Assembly: GCA_903856805.1 (NCBI GenBank)
Contig: CAIOCZ010000165.1
Coordinates: forward strand, 1-64,000
DNA from: an uncultured cyanobacterium
Lineage (GTDB): Bacteria; Cyanobacteriota; Cyanobacteriia; PCC-6307; Cyanobiaceae
Length of the DNA stretch: 64,000 nt
Direction of reading: 5' to 3'
This document shows, piece after piece, positions 40,253-47,532 of this stretch. How positions within the stretch are numbered: the stretch's first letter is position 1; every line of letters begins with the position of its first letter. Both the position numbers and the translations under genes were made by a program. Below the pieces are notes generated by a model, which was given only the letters and a program-made list of their open reading frames with translations, had not been told where the DNA came from and ran no database searches.

Positions 40253-40657
40253 ATGGCGTTCTCTCCCGCAGCGGCCGAGGTGGTGCTGGTGGCCCTGGCC
40301 CATGGGACGTCCATGCTGTTGGAAGCACTTTCGGTGCTCACGGTGCTCGGTGGCCTGCTGGCGATCAGCCGCGATGCCCTGCCCCGGCTGGGGCGGAGCA
40401 TGCCTCTGCGGCCCTCCAACCGGGCTCGCCTCACCTTCGGCAGTTGGCTGGCCCTGGCGCTGGAGTTCCAGCTCGGCGCCGACATCGTGGCGACCACGGT
40501 GAGCCCCTCCCCGTCCCACCTGATCCAACTGGGGGTGGTGGCCCTGATCCGAACCTTCCTCAATCTGTTTCTGAGCCGGGAAATCGAGGTGGAACGGCGC
40601 CAGGAGGAGGACCAGGCGCTGGTGCGGGAACGGGCCTACCGGAGGGACGAGCCATGA
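40253..40657 (+). CDS. DUF1622 membrane protein
   Basis: A 134-residue membrane protein with three hydrophobic helices (about 10-38, 65-85 and 92-110) and a charged C-terminal tail. The core ALEFQLGADIVATTVSPS and VALIRTFLNLFLSREIE match the DUF1622 family. Its function is unknown. Its stop overlaps the start of the sulfatase-activating enzyme (ATGA), so the two are co-translated and may be linked, for example as part of a redox or transport step for the activating enzyme; that link is a guess. Confidence 0.88.
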   Translation: MAFSPAAAEVVLVALAHGTSMLLEALSVLTVLGGLLAISRDALPRLGRSMPLRPSNRARLTFGSWLALALEFQLGADIVATTVSPSPSHLIQLGVVALIRTFLNLFLSREIEVERRQEEDQALVRERAYRRDEP

Positions 40658-41694
40658 CGATGGCCATGGGGGCCCCCCGCCCGCCGGGGCGTCCCCCCGC
40701 CCGCGACATGGTGTGGATTCCGCCCGGGGGCTTCCAGATGGGCTCCGATCACCACTACCCCGAGGAGGCTCCGGCCCACCGGGTGCTGGTGGAGGGGTTC
40801 TGGATCGACCGCACCGCGGTGACCAATGCCCAGTTCCTGAAGTTCGTGAAGGCCACGGGCCATGTCACCCAGGCTGAACGGCCCGCCGATCCCAGCGCTT
40901 ACCCCGACGCCCGTCCCGATCTCCTGCAGCCGGCCTCGATCGTGTTCGTGCCCCCCCCGCGGCCCATCGGGCGCGGCGATCCTTACCAGTGGTGGCACTA
41001 CGTGGCCGGGGCGGACTGGCGCCATCCTGAGGGGCCTGGCAGTTCGATCAAGGGGCGGGAGCATCATCCGGTGGTGCACCTGGCCCACGCCGATGCCCAG
41101 GCCTACGCCAACTGGATTGGCAAGAGCCTGCCCAGTGAGGCGGAGTGGGAACGGGCGGCCAAGGGGGGCCTGGAGGGGGTGGAGTTCGCCTGGGGCGCTG
41201 AGCTCCACCCCGGCGGCCGCCAGCTCGCCAACACCTGGCAGGGTGAGTTCCCCCATCACAACACCCGTGCCGACGGCTGGGAGCGCACCGCACCGGTGGG
41301 CTGTTATCCCGCCAATGGTTATGGCTTGCTCGACATGATCGGCAACGTGTGGGAATGGACCGATGACTGGTACCAGGACCACCGGACCAGGCTGGCGGCG
41401 GTGGCTCAGGCGGCCCCCTTCAGTTCCTCGGACGGGGCTGGCTCGACGAGCGGCGAGGCGCAGGGCTGTTGTGGCGCCCTACAAAACCCCCGTGGTGCCG
41501 CTGATGCCGCCGCCAGCATCGATCTCACCTCGCAGCACGGCAGCATTCCCCGCAAGGTGGTGAAGGGGGGATCCTTCCTCTGCGCCCCCAGCTACTGCCG
41601 CCGCTACCGGCCGGCGGCGCGGATGGCCCAGGGGATCGACACGTCCACCTGCCACCTGGGTTTCCGCTGCATCGTGCGGCCGCTGGTGGGCTGA
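40654..41694 (+). CDS. Formylglycine-generating enzyme (SUMF1/FGE family)
   Basis: A 346-residue enzyme that turns the active-site Cys of type I sulfatases into formylglycine. Signatures are MVWIPPGGFQMGSD, IDRTAVTNAQF, LPSEAEWERAA, DMIGNVWEWTDDWY, and the copper-binding cysteine pair C310/C315 in GGSFLCAPSYCRRYR, spaced as in characterised FGEs. There is no signal peptide, so it acts in the cytoplasm on the unfolded sulfatase. Its likely client, with the needed CxPxR motif, is encoded at 42955. It follows the DUF1622 gene with an ATGA overlap. Confidence 0.92.
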   Translation: MTMAMGAPRPPGRPPARDMVWIPPGGFQMGSDHHYPEEAPAHRVLVEGFWIDRTAVTNAQFLKFVKATGHVTQAERPADPSAYPDARPDLLQPASIVFVPPPRPIGRGDPYQWWHYVAGADWRHPEGPGSSIKGREHHPVVHLAHADAQAYANWIGKSLPSEAEWERAAKGGLEGVEFAWGAELHPGGRQLANTWQGEFPHHNTRADGWERTAPVGCYPANGYGLLDMIGNVWEWTDDWYQDHRTRLAAVAQAAPFSSSDGAGSTSGEAQGCCGALQNPRGAADAAASIDLTSQHGSIPRKVVKGGSFLCAPSYCRRYRPAARMAQGIDTSTCHLGFRCIVRPLVG

Positions 41695-41698
41695 ACGA

Positions 41699-42766
41699 CT
41701 ACGTCGTGCCCCCATATCCGAGGCGTTCCAGCTGGGAGGTCTCCTTGGACCGCCGCATCAAGCGGGATGGGCTTTCGCCATAGTGGGCTAGAAAATCCCG
41801 ACTGAACGAGGACTGGGAGAGGTAGCCGCAGGCATGGGCGATCTCCCGGAGCCGTGGGCTGGAGCCGGGGTGCTCCAGCAGGGCTTTCGCCTTGGCCAGG
41901 CGTTGTTTGCGGAGCCATTGCATCGGCCCGCAACCGAAGCGCTGTTTGAAGGCATATTGCAGCGAGCGGCGGCTGTAACTGCTGCGCTGCTCCATGTCGG
42001 AAAGGCTGATCGGCTCGTGGAGATGACCCAATAGCCATTCCAGCAGATTTTGGTGAGGGAAGGGTTCGGAAGAAACTGGCGCTCCTTGGCTTGCCTCAAG
42101 AAGATCGGGCACCAAAAGCATCACGATCAACCGACGGATCAGGTCGTCGAGGCGGAGCATGGGGTTGATGCTCGCCCCCAGGGTCAGGCACTGCTCCGTA
42201 TAGGCCAAGGTTTCCATCAGGAGGTTGTGCAGCCGATCACGGCGGGGATCGGCTCGCCGGCTCAGAATGGTGGGCCGCTCTAGGGCGCTACGCAGGGAAA
42301 GGGCATCAAAGCCGGGGCCACCGATGGCATGGGCCACCGGCACCAGGGTTTCGGGGGGGAAGCTGATAATCACCCCCGAACAGATGCTGCAGTGGACTTG
42401 GATGCGGGAGCGGGCCGCTGGAATGAACAAGCAGGAGGAGCGGAAGGCATAGGTTCGCTCCTCAATCGTGAAGGCATTGATGCCCGCCACATAGGGCAGC
42501 ACCAGCTGGGCCTCGGACTTCTGTTCCACGTCGCCATGAATGGCGGAGCCCAAAGTGGCCAGCAGGGTGAGATCCCCGAGGCGAAGAATGCCGGATTGGT
42601 TGCTGAAGGGCTGGTCGCGTTCAGGATGATCCCAGCGGTTGACCTGGAAGGGAAGGAAGTTTCGGACCACCCCCCCGAAATCAAAGGGGTTGGTTGAGGC
42701 GAGGGAAGCGCCCGGGAGCTTGATTAACGGGGGGAGAGCCGTGCTTTCACCAAGCCCGGGGAGCAT
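41699..42766 (-). CDS. AraC-family transcriptional regulator
   Basis: A 355-residue regulator. The N-terminal 220 residues are a sensing domain of the AraC-binding-like type; the C-terminal 100 residues are the double helix-turn-helix (SLSDMEQRSSYSRRSLQYAFKQRFG and LREIAHACGYLSQSSFSRDF). It lies between the FGE gene (convergent, 4-bp gap) and the divergent sulfatase gene, so it most likely controls the sulfatase and perhaps itself. The inducer could be a sulfated compound, but nothing in the sequence shows it. Confidence 0.93.
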   Translation of the reverse strand: MLPGLGESTALPPLIKLPGASLASTNPFDFGGVVRNFLPFQVNRWDHPERDQPFSNQSGILRLGDLTLLATLGSAIHGDVEQKSEAQLVLPYVAGINAFTIEERTYAFRSSCLFIPAARSRIQVHCSICSGVIISFPPETLVPVAHAIGGPGFDALSLRSALERPTILSRRADPRRDRLHNLLMETLAYTEQCLTLGASINPMLRLDDLIRRLIVMLLVPDLLEASQGAPVSSEPFPHQNLLEWLLGHLHEPISLSDMEQRSSYSRRSLQYAFKQRFGCGPMQWLRKQRLAKAKALLEHPGSSPRLREIAHACGYLSQSSFSRDFLAHYGESPSRLMRRSKETSQLERLGYGGTT

Positions 42767-42782
42767 CGAATTTTGCTCGTGT

Positions 42783-42813
42783 GATTGTAAGGAATCCTAG
42801 TGATGGGATTGTA
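42783..42813. promoter_or_regulatory. Candidate AraC-type operator (direct repeat)
   Basis: The heptamer GATTGTA occurs at 42783-42789 and 42807-42813 in the same direction with a 24-bp period, about two helical turns, as often seen for AraC-family half-sites. An AATCC-N8-GGATT inverted pair (42793-42810) overlaps it. It lies just upstream of the regulator start and in the shared divergent region of 188 bp with the sulfatase gene. Its function is inferred. Confidence 0.3.
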
Positions 42814-42954
42814 CTTTGCCAAGCTGGTACCTAATTCGCGCAATGTTGGGCCAAAAACGCAGGGCGGAGTGGGCTGGGGGCCTGGGTTGTTCACAGGTCA
42901 TGGGCGCAGGTCCAACTGCTGGCTACGGTTTGACATGAGCCCCTCCCCGCTCCG

Positions 42955-45309
42955 ATGCCGCTGAACGAGTACAAGTCCGGTGCCGCCTTCCCCGGCGTGA
43001 TCGGCCGCACTGCCGACGTCTCCACTCCCGCCTGGCCGCAGCCGAACCGGGCCAAGGAGGGGGCCCCAAACGTGTTGTTTCTTGTGCTCGACGACACGGG
43101 TTTCGGCCAGCTCGGTTGCTACGGCAGTCCGATCGCGACCCCCCACCTGGATGCCCTGGCGGCCGACGGCCTGCGTTTCAACAACATGCACACCACGGCG
43201 CTGTGTTCGCCGTCGCGTTCCTGCATGCTCAACGGCCGCAACCACCACTCCAACGGCCTGGCCTGCATCACCGAGGGGTCGATGGGGTTCCCCGGCTCCA
43301 ACGGCATCATCCCGTTCGAGAACGGTTTCCTCTCGGAGATCCTGCTGCTGCATGGCTACAACACTTACGCCATCGGCAAGTGGCACCTCACCCCCGCTGA
43401 GCAAACCTCGGCGGCCGGTCCCTATGACCGCTGGCCCCTCGGGCGGGGTTTTGAGCGGTTCTACGGCTTCCTAGGTGGCGATACCCACCAGTACTACCCG
43501 GAGCTGGTGCAGGACAACAGCCAGGTGGAACCGCCGGCCACCCCCGAGGAGGGCTACCACCTCACCCCGGATCTGGTAGGCAAGGCCAAGGCGATGATCG
43601 CCGATTCGAAGCAGGTAGCGCCCAATAAGCCTTTCTTCATGTATTTCTGCACCGGCGCCATGCATGCGCCCCACCATGTGCCCAAGGAATGGGCCGACAA
43701 GTACAAGGGCAAGTTTGATGGCGGCTGGGATGCCTATCGCGAGCACACCTTCGCGCGCCAGAAGGAGCTGGGCATCATCCCGGCTGACACGGTGCTGTCC
43801 CGCCACGATCCGGACGTGCCCGATTGGAACGGCCTCTCCGCCGACGAGAAGCGTCTCTATGCCCGGATGATGGAGGTGTTCGCCGGTTTCCTGGAGCACA
43901 CCGACCATTACATCGGCGAGCTGATTAACTTCCTCAAGGAGATTGGCGAATACGAGAACACCATGATCATGGTGATTTCCGACAACGGCGCCAGCTCAGA
44001 GGGTGGCCCCACTGGATCGGTGAACGAAGGCAAGTTCTTCAACAACGTGCCGGAGAATCTGGAGCAGAATCTGGCTGCCATTGATGACATCGGTGGCCCG
44101 AAGTACTTCAACCACTACCCCTGGGGCTGGACCCACGCCGGCAACACGCCGTTCCGGCGCTGGAAGCGCGAAACCTACCGAGGCGGCACCAGCGATCCCT
44201 TCATCCTGAGCTGGCCTCAGGGCATCGTCGCCCGTGGCGAGGTGCGCTCCCAGTACTGCCATGCGATCGACATGGTGCCCACGGTGCTCGAGGCCCTTGG
44301 CATCGAGGCGCCCACCGCCATCAAGGGAGTGACCCAAAGCCCGATCGAGGGCTTCTCCCTAGCCTCCAGCTTCGCCAATCCCGCTGCGCCCAGCCTCCAT
44401 CTCACCCAGTATTTCGAGATGTTTGGCCACCGCTCCCTTTATCACGATGGTTGGCGGGCCGTTTGCCCTTGGCCCGGCACCTCGTTTGTGGAATCAGGTC
44501 GCCGCTTCGGCGATCCGATCAGCTACGACCAGCTGATTCAACTCGATGCCCACGGCTGGGAGCTCTACAACCTCACGGACGACTTCGCCGAAACCAATAA
44601 CCTGGCCGAGGCGGAACGGGAGCGCCTGATCGCCATGATTGGTATGTGGTACGTGGAGGCCGGCAAGTACAACGTGCTGCCGATCGATAGCCGTGGCACC
44701 CAGCGCTTTGCCGTGGAGCGGCCCCAGATCGCGGCCGATCGGGAGCGCTATATTTATTACCCTGGTACCCAGATGGTGCCCGCCAATGCGGCCCCTCGGG
44801 TGTTGAACCGGCCCCATTCGATTTCGGTGGAGCTGGAGGTGCCTGAGGGGGGCGCCGAGGGGGTGTTGTTCAGCATGGGCGGCAACGACGGCGGCTTTGC
44901 CTTCTATGTGCAGAACGGCCTACTCACCTACGGCTACAACTACGTCGCAGAGCGGTTCTTCCACGTGCGCTCCAGCGGCCCGATCCCGGCAGGCCATCAC
45001 ATTGTGAGCGCCGAATTCACCCCCACCGGCGCCCCCGATATTGCCAACGGCAAGGGCACGCCGGCCAAGGTGGTGCTGTTTGTGGATGGTCAGCCTGTGG
45101 GCGAAGGGGACCTGCCGGTCACCATTCCCCTGAGCCTGGGACTGGCGGCCGGTGTGGCGGTGGGAGCCGATCCGGGTTCGCCGGCCCTGCCCGATTACAA
45201 GCCGCCGTTTGCCTACGCCGGTCGGATCAAACGGGCGCTGGTGGATGTGTCCGGCACTCCGGTGGATGACCTGAAGGAGCAGATGCGCCAGATCCTGGCG
45301 CGGCAGTAG
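42955..45309 (+). CDS. Type I sulfatase (arylsulfatase)
   Basis: A 784-residue alkaline-phosphatase-fold hydrolase of sulfate esters. NVLFLVLDDTGFGQLGCYG holds the metal-binding Asp46/Asp47; the activation motif is C84-S-P-S-R88 in TALCSPSRSCMLNG, so Cys84 must be made formylglycine; AIGKWHL gives the catalytic Lys and ISDNGAS the second metal Asp/Asn. The last 180 residues form a beta-rich domain (VLFSMGGNDGGFAFYVQNG). No signal peptide is visible at ATG 42955, so it seems cytoplasmic. It belongs with the FGE and the AraC regulator. The natural sulfate ester is unknown. Confidence 0.95.
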   Translation: MPLNEYKSGAAFPGVIGRTADVSTPAWPQPNRAKEGAPNVLFLVLDDTGFGQLGCYGSPIATPHLDALAADGLRFNNMHTTALCSPSRSCMLNGRNHHSNGLACITEGSMGFPGSNGIIPFENGFLSEILLLHGYNTYAIGKWHLTPAEQTSAAGPYDRWPLGRGFERFYGFLGGDTHQYYPELVQDNSQVEPPATPEEGYHLTPDLVGKAKAMIADSKQVAPNKPFFMYFCTGAMHAPHHVPKEWADKYKGKFDGGWDAYREHTFARQKELGIIPADTVLSRHDPDVPDWNGLSADEKRLYARMMEVFAGFLEHTDHYIGELINFLKEIGEYENTMIMVISDNGASSEGGPTGSVNEGKFFNNVPENLEQNLAAIDDIGGPKYFNHYPWGWTHAGNTPFRRWKRETYRGGTSDPFILSWPQGIVARGEVRSQYCHAIDMVPTVLEALGIEAPTAIKGVTQSPIEGFSLASSFANPAAPSLHLTQYFEMFGHRSLYHDGWRAVCPWPGTSFVESGRRFGDPISYDQLIQLDAHGWELYNLTDDFAETNNLAEAERERLIAMIGMWYVEAGKYNVLPIDSRGTQRFAVERPQIAADRERYIYYPGTQMVPANAAPRVLNRPHSISVELEVPEGGAEGVLFSMGGNDGGFAFYVQNGLLTYGYNYVAERFFHVRSSGPIPAGHHIVSAEFTPTGAPDIANGKGTPAKVVLFVDGQPVGEGDLPVTIPLSLGLAAGVAVGADPGSPALPDYKPPFAYAGRIKRALVDVSGTPVDDLKEQMRQILARQ

Positions 45310-45330
45310 GGCCCCGCCAGCGCCAGGAGG

Positions 45331-45963
45331 ATGCAGCCCATGGTTCAGGGTTTGTCCACCACCCCGACAACGCCAACCCCGACCCGCCGGCCGCGGCCCC
45401 CCCAGGGGGGACCGGTGCGGTTGTCCAGCGTGCTGGGGACCGGATTGGGGGTGGCGGGGGCCTATCTGGTGGCGCGACACCTGCCGGCGTTACCCTCCAC
45501 CTTCCTCACCGCCCTGCTCTTGGCGGGGGGATCCGTGCTCAGTGGTCGGGCCCTGGAGGCCTGGGCCTGGTGGGGGGTGCTGGGGGCGGGCTGCGGCTCC
45601 CTGCTGGGCAGCGCCATGGTGGTGGCGCAGAAGCTGCAGACCACGCAGCCCCACGAGGGCCTGGGGCTGCGATTGGCACTCTTGGCCTGCCTGATGGTGG
45701 CGGGCGCGATCGGTGGCGGCAGCCTGAGCCGCGATGCGGAGCGCGCCGATCGGCGGCGCCCCAAGGACACCCTGCGCTCCGCCAGTGGCCTCACCACCGG
45801 TATCTTCGCGATCCTGGTGACCGTGGCCTTCGTCCATTCCGGACTGGATGAGGCCCGCACCGTGTCCAGCCGGTTGAGCACCTCGCTCACAATCCTGGTG
45901 TTGTCCCTTTCAGGGCCGGGTTGGCTGGTGCACCTGCTCGGAACCGGCCGGTGGCGGCGCTAA
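45331..45963 (+). CDS. Multi-pass membrane protein, hypothetical
   Basis: A 210-residue protein with a Thr/Pro/Arg-rich cytoplasmic N-terminus (about 30 residues) and five or six hydrophobic segments (near 32-48, 56-72, 77-98, 112-130, 152-168 and 182-200), with a charged loop RDAERADRRRPKDT. No family is recognised. It begins 21 bp after the sulfatase stop in the same direction, so it is probably co-transcribed. A transporter or accessory role for the sulfatase module is possible, without direct evidence. ATG 45331 or 45340 could be the start. Confidence 0.72.
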   Translation: MQPMVQGLSTTPTTPTPTRRPRPPQGGPVRLSSVLGTGLGVAGAYLVARHLPALPSTFLTALLLAGGSVLSGRALEAWAWWGVLGAGCGSLLGSAMVVAQKLQTTQPHEGLGLRLALLACLMVAGAIGGGSLSRDAERADRRRPKDTLRSASGLTTGIFAILVTVAFVHSGLDEARTVSSRLSTSLTILVLSLSGPGWLVHLLGTGRWRR

Positions 45964-45990: not shown

Positions 45991-47532
45991 TCAGGCGAGC
46001 AGCGGCTGACCCTGGCCGCCGTGGGCCTTGTCCTTGAACGGATCGGCGTGGTGGGGCAGCATCAGGGCCTCCTTGAAACTCATCTCACCGCGGCCGGCGA
46101 TCAGGTCGCGGAAGGCCATGCGGGCGGCGGCGCCATCCACGACCCCCGCCGTGCTGCTCCCCCCGGAGGCCACGGCACCACCATTCACCAGGGCGTCCTG
46201 GCCAAACAGGGCGCCGACCACTGCCCCTGGACCAGCTGACGGCGCCAGGGCATCTCCACCGCCGGTGCTGGTGTCCAGCACGGTGATGGTCTTGCTGCTG
46301 GCGAGCCACTGGCTGTGGCTGGGATCGCCGAACACTTTGATCTGCAAGTTCTCGCTGCCCTCCGGGCGTTGATCGGCGGCCAGCTCAAAGCGCAGGGTGG
46401 CCCAGCCATCGCGGCCCACTGTGCGGCTTCCCATAAGCGACCCACGGCTCAGATCCTGCTGATTCACGTGCGCTCCCTCAACTTCGTAGTAAAGGCTGGT
46501 GCCCTTGGCGAGGTTGGTCTTGATCTGGACCAGCAGGGGGCTGCCCTCGCTCACCCAGCGGCTGGAGGTCTGAACCCGGACGTCCGCGGGCGCGCCAGCT
46601 TCGGGTATGGGGAGTCTTGTGCCAGGGGAGTCGAGGGAGGCTGCGGCCACGATCGGCGCGGCCACGGCGATGGGCGCAGCCCCAATCGGCACAGCCGCAA
46701 TCGGAGCGGGCACTGGATTGGCTATCACCGTGGGGATCTCTTCCGAGGTCGGAGCCACCAGGGTGTCGATGACCGTCACCTGAAGGGGTGAGGACTGATC
46801 ACTGGGCAGCTCCGGTAAGGGCGCAATCTCCGCAGCATTGGTGATGCTGGAGATCGCACTGAACACATAGGAGCCGAGGGCAAGATCCGGCGAGGTGTAC
46901 TGGAACTGGCCGGGTTGGAGTTCTTCGGCTTGGCCCACCTCCGTCCCGTCGCGCAGCACGGTCACCGTGGTACCGGGATCGGCCAAGAGGCTCAGGGTGG
47001 GGGAGGCGTCGTCCGTGGGGCCTTCGGCCAAACCGCCTGCGGCGGTGAGAAACCCTTCAATGGACGGCGGCGCCGGTGCTGCCACCCCCAGATCCGCATA
47101 GGTGACCGACTCGAGGTTTTCTTGGTTGATGGCCTGACCCGCTGGAATGCGGGCGATCGGCATCACCTTGAAGATCAGATCCGAATTGGCTGGAATGCCA
47201 GAGCGGGCGGTGCTGCCATAGGCCAAGGCGGCGGGGATCCGGATCTCGGCGATTTCTCCCAGGGTGAGCTTGGGAAAAGCCTGGTCCCAGCCTTGAATCA
47301 CCTGGCCGGCGCCCAGGGTGAACTCAAAAGATTGCCGGCCAGTGACGGGGGTGAAGGTGGTGAAGTCGTAGTTGCCGTCGAAGCGGCTGCCGTTCGAGGC
47401 CAGGGTGCCTTCGTAGTAGGCCAGGACCCGATCGCCAGCCTGGAGGGCGGGACCGGAGGAGGGCCGCAGGACAATGGTTTCGAGTGAGATGAGAGCCACG
47501 CTTAATGGAGCCAAAGGGACCGTTAAGGTCAT
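45991..47532 (-). CDS. FKBP-type isomerase fused to Ig-like and Calx-beta-like surface modules
   Basis: A 513-residue protein. Residues about 25-126 form an FKBP domain with GDRVLAYYEGTL, VIQGWDQAF, LAYGST and NSDLIFKV. A proline/alanine-rich stretch with an Ig-like module (about 150-260) follows, then a beta module of about 330-425 (WVSEGSPLLVQIKT ... DGWATLRFELA ... SENLQIKVF) of the type repeated in large cyanobacterial surface and haemolysin-type proteins. There is no classical signal peptide; the last 90 residues are Gly/Ala-rich. It may be exported by a type I system, but that is inference. ATG 47532 gives the start. Confidence 0.85.
   Translation of the reverse strand: MTLTVPLAPLSVALISLETIVLRPSSGPALQAGDRVLAYYEGTLASNGSRFDGNYDFTTFTPVTGRQSFEFTLGAGQVIQGWDQAFPKLTLGEIAEIRIPAALAYGSTARSGIPANSDLIFKVMPIARIPAGQAINQENLESVTYADLGVAAPAPPSIEGFLTAAGGLAEGPTDDASPTLSLLADPGTTVTVLRDGTEVGQAEELQPGQFQYTSPDLALGSYVFSAISSITNAAEIAPLPELPSDQSSPLQVTVIDTLVAPTSEEIPTVIANPVPAPIAAVPIGAAPIAVAAPIVAAASLDSPGTRLPIPEAGAPADVRVQTSSRWVSEGSPLLVQIKTNLAKGTSLYYEVEGAHVNQQDLSRGSLMGSRTVGRDGWATLRFELAADQRPEGSENLQIKVFGDPSHSQWLASSKTITVLDTSTGGGDALAPSAGPGAVVGALFGQDALVNGGAVASGGSSTAGVVDGAAARMAFRDLIAGRGEMSFKEALMLPHHADPFKDKAHGGQGQPLLA

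What the first reader, a model, noticed from the sequence alone, without database searches (positions are those of the whole stretch)
40253..45963. Self-contained sulfatase module: DUF1622, FGE, AraC regulator, sulfatase, membrane protein
The sulfatase has the C84-S-P-S-R activation motif, and the enzyme that makes formylglycine lies beside it with both copper cysteines. An AraC regulator sits between them. The DUF1622 membrane protein is coupled to the FGE gene by ATGA, which gives this unknown family a possible role in sulfatase maturation. The sulfatase has no signal peptide, so it must act on an imported substrate; the membrane protein after it could be the importer.
Basis: partly seen in the sequence, partly recalled or inferred. 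Interest (0 to 1): 0.6.

Follow-up and report, generated by a model that had tools for sequence, protein, structure and literature searches.

The report
Split sulfatase-and-uptake operon of lake picocyanobacteria
A lake cyanobacterium carries half of a conserved gene set that probably imports sulfate esters and strips off their sulfate; the unknown membrane protein DUF1622 belongs, by its genomic neighbours, with a bile-acid-type transporter and a second unknown membrane protein rather than with the enzyme that activates the sulfatase.

Summary
The same order recurs in three other lake picocyanobacteria. The DUF1622/FGE link is real in Cyanobiaceae (69 of 91 DUF1622 genomes have this FGE, 5 of 209 others; same strand throughout). 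But DUF1622's tightest partners are an SBF (bile-acid-symporter-type) transporter, within 1 kb in 69 of 72 same-contig cases, and DUF202. The usual operon is AraC | sulfatase-FGE-DUF1622-DUF202-SBF(-SulP). In this genome it is split: sulfatase-SBF-DUF202 lie on contig C91. Outside the family DUF1622 mostly lacks FGE, and SBF-DUF1622-DUF202 stay beside a 68% sulfatase orthologue in genomes where I found no two-cysteine FGE. DUF1622 has no cysteine, so a copper or redox role on FGE is unlikely. Best reading: a sulfate-ester uptake and desulfation system in which DUF1622 is on the membrane side. E. coli yidFGHIJKL has the same logic. New variant of a known kind; substrate and transport are not shown.

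The parts
40253..40657 (+). DUF1622 membrane protein, 134 aa; conserved R..FG.WL.LALEFQL.ADI..T...P.....L..LG..A.IRT.LN.FL..E
   Evidence: PF07784 E 3.8e-22; only DUF1622 of the genome; conservation; three-helix model pLDDT 83
40654..41694 (+). formylglycine-generating enzyme (aerobic FGE), 346 aa, copper cysteines C310/C315
   Evidence: PF03781 E 4e-79; PDB 6muj E 5e-69; C....CxRYR motif; the only full-length FGE with both cysteines found in this genome
41699..42766 (-). AraC-family regulator, 355 aa, divergent from the sulfatase
   Evidence: HTH_18 E 2e-21; homologues divergent from the sulfatase in related loci
42834..42861 (+). possible regulator site: degenerate plus exact copy of AAAAACGCA, period 19, in the AraC/sulfatase intergenic region
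   Evidence: two exact copies, period 19, at the same place in L040, L041 and L043; the window keeps one exact copy (42853-42861)
42955..45309 (+). type I (formylglycine) sulfatase, 784 aa, C84-SPSR, no signal peptide, extra C-terminal region of about 200 aa
   Evidence: PF00884 E 9e-65; closest solved 7all and 4cxk/1hdh arylsulfatases; orthologues 93-95% in L040/L041/L043, 83% in L204, 68% in L221/L222
45331..45963 (+). TM210: 210-aa six-helix membrane protein without a named family
   Evidence: no Pfam/NCBIfam match; homologues beside SBF/DUF1622 in related loci, 45-69%; model pLDDT 69

Best explanation
The locus is one half of a sulfate-ester uptake and desulfation system of lake picocyanobacteria. 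Inferred order of events: an organic sulfate ester enters through a membrane module (SBF transporter with DUF1622, DUF202 and often TM210); FGE oxidises C84 of the cytosolic sulfatase to formylglycine; the sulfatase releases sulfate inside the cell; the AraC protein controls the sulfatase promoter. In most relatives these genes form one operon, AraC | sulfatase-FGE-DUF1622-DUF202-SBF(-SulP). In the window's lineage it is split in two: DUF1622-FGE | AraC | sulfatase-TM210 here, and a second sulfatase with SBF and DUF202 on contig C91. DUF1622 is thus a membrane-side partner of SBF and DUF202 and not an FGE cofactor. Shown: gene content, motifs, conserved order, co-occurrence, distances, lack of signal peptide. 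Inferred: transport direction and substrate, the role of DUF1622 within the membrane set, the inducer.
For: Cyanobiaceae, 300 genomes: DUF1622 with SBF 79/12/15/194 (p 2e-43); on one contig in 72 genomes, within 1 kb in 69; DUF1622 with FGE-I 69/22/5/204 (p 7e-42), within 1 kb in 33 of 63, same strand in all 63. By genus 13 of 14 DUF1622 genera have SBF, 2 of 45 others. Tight operon order in many loci, gaps mostly 18-90 nt. SBF profile matches solved Na+/bile-acid transporters. Sulfatases within 1.5 kb of DUF1622/SBF/DUF202 lack a signal-like stretch in 43 of 45 cases, others in 24 of 36 (p 8e-4). Orthologues of the window sulfatase lie beside SBF-DUF1622-DUF202 in another family (L221, L222) and in a cluster with FGE, SBF and SulP in a third (L204). 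Own genome: DUF202-SBF-sulfatase on C91. DUF1622 tree: the window lies in a 5-row clade inside the operon-linked clade. E. coli K-12 has DUF202 x2, sulfatase, Na+ symporter, AraC and an anSME-like fragment in one locus.
Against: No transport or sulfatase activity is shown. One genome (G262) has DUF1622 beside FGE and no SBF at E 1e-40, so SBF is not always needed. DUF1622 also lives alone in many genomes (most other cyanobacteria, alphaproteobacteria), so it has another or a wider role. Streamlined small genomes lacking everything inflate the co-occurrence p-values, and related genomes are not independent; physical proximity suffers less. The signal-peptide test is a hydrophobicity rule, not SignalP.
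Confidence: 0.6

Rival explanations
1. DUF1622 helps FGE mature the sulfatase, for example by delivering copper or setting redox state.
For: Strong co-occurrence and same-strand adjacency with FGE in Cyanobiaceae; ATGA overlap in the window.
Against: No cysteine in the window protein and no conserved Cys, His or Met; closer to SBF than to FGE; mostly without FGE elsewhere; kept with SBF, DUF202 and a sulfatase orthologue in G424 and G371, where no FGE with the cysteine pair was found.
Confidence: 0.1
2. DUF1622 and DUF202 are generic small membrane proteins that travel with the sulfatase operon without a specific role in it, for instance in envelope or ion homeostasis (MscS and SulP are also often near).
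For: Many DUF1622 genes stand alone; MscS and SulP recur in the operon; no fold or profile match gives a function.
Against: Gaps of a few tens of nucleotides and the same partners in several cyanobacterial families and in alphaproteobacteria L116/L117; G310 and G313 carry one operon-linked and one solitary copy in two deep clades; DUF202 is also beside the E. coli sulfatase YidJ.
Confidence: 0.2
3. TM210 (45331-45963) is the importer of the substrate, so the module is complete in itself.
For: It follows the sulfatase in the window and in L040, L041, L043; G262 has no SBF.
Against: In other loci TM210 stands beside SBF and does not replace it; SBF has known transporter relatives, none was found for TM210.
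Confidence: 0.07

Closest known systems
E. coli K-12 yidFGHIJKL locus
   Same: Signal-less type I sulfatase (YidJ), Na+ symporter (YidK), two DUF202 proteins (YidG, YidH), a further small membrane protein (YidI), AraC regulator (YidL), and a maturase-like gene (YidF matches anaerobic sulfatase-maturing enzyme).
   Different: SSF instead of SBF symporter, anSME-like fragment instead of FGE, no DUF1622 or TM210 match in YidI. I found no functional study of it in the held papers.
Pseudomonas aeruginosa arylsulfatase AtsA (PAS)
   Same: Same sulfatase superfamily and the closest well-studied solved relative (4cxk, 1hdh; organism from memory). From memory, not tested here: cytosolic, sulfate-starvation induced, with ester-import genes beside it.
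   Different: 784 versus 536 aa with an extra C-terminal region; no ABC importer genes found in the cluster here.
Freshwater picocyanobacterial sulfatase gene sets (PMC9361551)
   Same: That study reports arylsulfatases in freshwater and not in marine strains.
   Different: It does not mention formylglycine, and I saw no treatment of the operon, SBF, DUF202 or DUF1622.
VTC complex subunits carrying DUF202
   Same: DUF202 is annotated in Vtc1-3 of a diatom (PMC7283521); the operon's DUF202 profile has weak hits to solved VTC1 (E 0.37-0.9).
   Different: No polyphosphate polymerase domain; the relation is not significant by this search.

Membership tests
Aerobic formylglycine-generating enzyme | FGE fold with the two copper cysteines (C....CxRYR) | tested here: met
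   PF03781 E 4e-79; C310/C315 aligned with solved FGEs
Aerobic formylglycine-generating enzyme | Converts the sulfatase Cys to formylglycine | not testable with these tools
   needs biochemistry
Type I sulfatase | C-x-P-x-R activation motif and sulfatase domain | tested here: met
   C84-SPSR, PF00884 E 9e-65
Type I sulfatase | Metal and catalytic residues (DD near the N-terminus, KWH, H, DNG, K) | tested here: met
   aligned with 4cxk (read from the alignment, not checked against a residue list)
Type I sulfatase, cytosolic | No export signal | tested here: met
   no hydrophobic N-terminal stretch in the window protein or its orthologues; rule of thumb, not SignalP
DUF1622 (PF07784) | Pfam profile above gathering score | tested here: met
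   78.5 bits, cut-off 24
SBF-sulfatase operon described here | SBF and DUF202 next to DUF1622 | tested here: not met
   in this genome SBF and DUF202 are on contig C91; the window holds a split-off half
AraC family regulator | HTH_18 DNA-binding domain | tested here: met
   E 2e-21

The most novel reading that the evidence does not exclude
DUF1622, DUF202 and often TM210 form with SBF a new kind of multi-part membrane system for organic sulfate esters (or for the sulfate released), in which DUF202, a domain also found in VTC subunits, and DUF1622 build an anion path.
Probability: 0.2. Interest if true: 0.65.

Novelty: new variant of a known kind. Interest (0 to 1): 0.45.

Why it matters
DUF1622 and DUF202 have no assigned role in bacteria that I could find (one incidental paper for DUF1622). 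Their steady place beside a bile-acid-type transporter and signal-less sulfatases gives both a testable function and suggests how lake picocyanobacteria could use organic sulfur. It also warns against reading the window alone: the FGE neighbour would suggest a maturation factor, the wider comparison points to transport.

Tried and rejected
Structure comparison of DUF1622: three-helix model, no PDB match at E 0.001 or better; profile search of the PDB: none. TM210 model too weak to search. Profile comparison of DUF1622, TM210, DUF202 and YidI with each other: no relation. Rfam and tRNA scans of the window: nothing. Promoter and terminator scans: at chance level. Direct repeats in the window's intergenic region alone: one weak 10-nt pair; the conserved element came only from the four-genome alignment. 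FGE/DUF1622 association in alphaproteobacteria: not found (1 of 12 versus 16 of 276, p 0.5).

Full report
Observation. The five genes are real and placed as stated. DUF1622 (40253-40657) overlaps FGE (40654-41694) by ATGA. FGE carries C310 and C315 in the FGE-specific C....CxRYR motif and matches solved FGEs at E 5e-69. The AraC gene lies on the minus strand with about 190 nt to the sulfatase start. The sulfatase has C84-SPSR and no hydrophobic N-terminus (its orthologues likewise). The last gene, here TM210, has no named family.

Conservation of this exact set. Of 80 FGE loci from a scan of 84,980 species genomes, L040, L041 and L043 carry DUF1622-FGE-AraC-sulfatase-TM210 in the same order; L039 carries DUF1622-FGE. 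Their titles are those of cyanobacterial MAGs, several from lakes. argH and PP2C flank the set in all four, and ftsY and nusB in L041 and L043. The sulfatase is far more alike (93-95%) than its neighbours (68-88%). Translational coupling is not general.

The wider operon. In most other picocyanobacterial FGE loci the order is AraC on one strand, then sulfatase-FGE-DUF1622-DUF202-SBF on the other, sometimes with SulP or MscS, with gaps of a few tens of nucleotides; another common order is TM210-DUF1622-DUF202-SBF-sulfatase-FGE (families named). The sulfatase there is a 526-aa CTAGR type, about 22% identical to the window's. The window's genome has one DUF1622, and its SBF and DUF202 lie with a CTAGR sulfatase on contig C91. 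In the DUF1622 tree the window falls in a five-row clade (100/92) within the operon-linked clade. So the window locus looks like a split-off, rearranged part of that operon; this direction of change is inferred.

Unbiased counts. In 300 Cyanobiaceae genomes DUF1622 was found in 91, close FGE in 74, SBF in 94. DUF1622 with FGE: 69 both, 22 and 5 alone, 204 neither (p 7e-42); with SBF: 79, 12, 15, 194 (p 2e-43). On shared contigs DUF1622 is within 1 kb of SBF in 69 of 72 and of FGE in 33 of 63 genomes. Distances are between domain matches, not gene ends. By genus the association stays (13 of 14 versus 2 of 45, p 3e-10). Small streamlined genomes that lack everything inflate these p-values; proximity is the sounder evidence.

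Outside the family. Among about 220 other cyanobacterial genomes of the phylum draw, 47 have DUF1622 and 19 FGE, 13 both (p 4e-6), so 34 of 47 lack this FGE. Of the fetched DUF1622 places outside the family, about ten have SBF, DUF202, sulfatase or FGE within a few kb (L195, L198, L199, L202-L204, L217, L218, L221, L222); the rest stand alone. In alphaproteobacteria 11 of 12 DUF1622 genomes lack FGE (the chosen centre genome left out), yet L116 and L117 show SBF-DUF1622-FGE in a row. L221 and L222 hold SBF-DUF1622-DUF202 beside a 68% orthologue of the window sulfatase; in those genomes (G424, G371) none of the examined PF03781 proteins has the FGE cysteine pair (all four in G424; five of six in G371). 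G424 keeps a decayed FGE fragment, and an anaerobic maturase was not searched for.

What DUF1622 can be. It is predicted as three long helices. Invariant or nearly invariant residues include R59, W65, E71, Q73, D77, R100, N104 but no Cys, His or Met; the window protein has no cysteine. That argues against copper or redox chemistry. Nothing solved resembles it. Its partner SBF matches solved Na+/bile-acid transporters at E-values from 1e-16 to 1e-9.

Where the sulfatase works. Sulfatases within 1.5 kb of DUF1622, SBF or DUF202 lack a signal-like stretch in 43 of 45 cases, others in 24 of 36 (p 8e-4). Several loci have both kinds: a signal-less one on the DUF1622/DUF202 side and a signal-bearing one elsewhere, often beside FGE (L182, L183, L187, L202, L203). 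This fits import of the ester for the signal-less type.

A parallel. I recalled the E. coli yid locus and then checked it: yidG and yidH are DUF202, yidJ a signal-less Cys-type sulfatase, yidK an SSF symporter, yidL AraC type, and yidF matches the anaerobic sulfatase-maturing enzyme (E 5e-4). YidI matches neither DUF1622 nor TM210. The shared logic supports the transport reading, though I found no functional study of that locus either.

Regulation. The AraC/sulfatase intergenic region of L040, L041 and L043 holds two copies of AAAAACGCA with a period of 19; the window keeps one exact copy at 42853-42861. A regulator site is plausible but untested.

Known and new. Freshwater picocyanobacterial arylsulfatases are reported (PMC9361551). 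DUF1622 appears in one held paper, incidentally. I found no account of the operon, but most subscription journals are not in the library.

Noticed in passing
window 42834-42861; L040 10141, L041 5519, L043 10177: AAAAACGCA repeated with period 19 between the AraC and sulfatase genes, conserved in three relatives and half-kept in the window.
   Followed up: partly
L042, L044, L045, L047, L059, L063, L066 (AraC/sulfatase intergenic regions): A different conserved element, TGCACTTTTYGAGYGG, in or near the divergent regions of the usual operon; it may overlap the start of the AraC gene.
   Followed up: no
window 45991-47532: FKBP-type prolyl isomerase fused to a long tail with a weak Big_13 match, next to TM210; absent from the syntenic L041 and L043 at E 1e-20.
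   Followed up: no
L081, L086, L077: Loci with two DUF1622 copies, L081 and L086 also with two FGE matches, as if the operon had been duplicated in tandem.
   Followed up: no
L065 9054-9269, L204 8007-8279: Truncated DUF1622 genes inside otherwise complete sulfatase clusters, hinting that DUF1622 can be lost.
   Followed up: no
G000 contig C108 (L211): Second, distant FGE-like gene fragment at a contig end in the same genome (44% identity).
   Followed up: no
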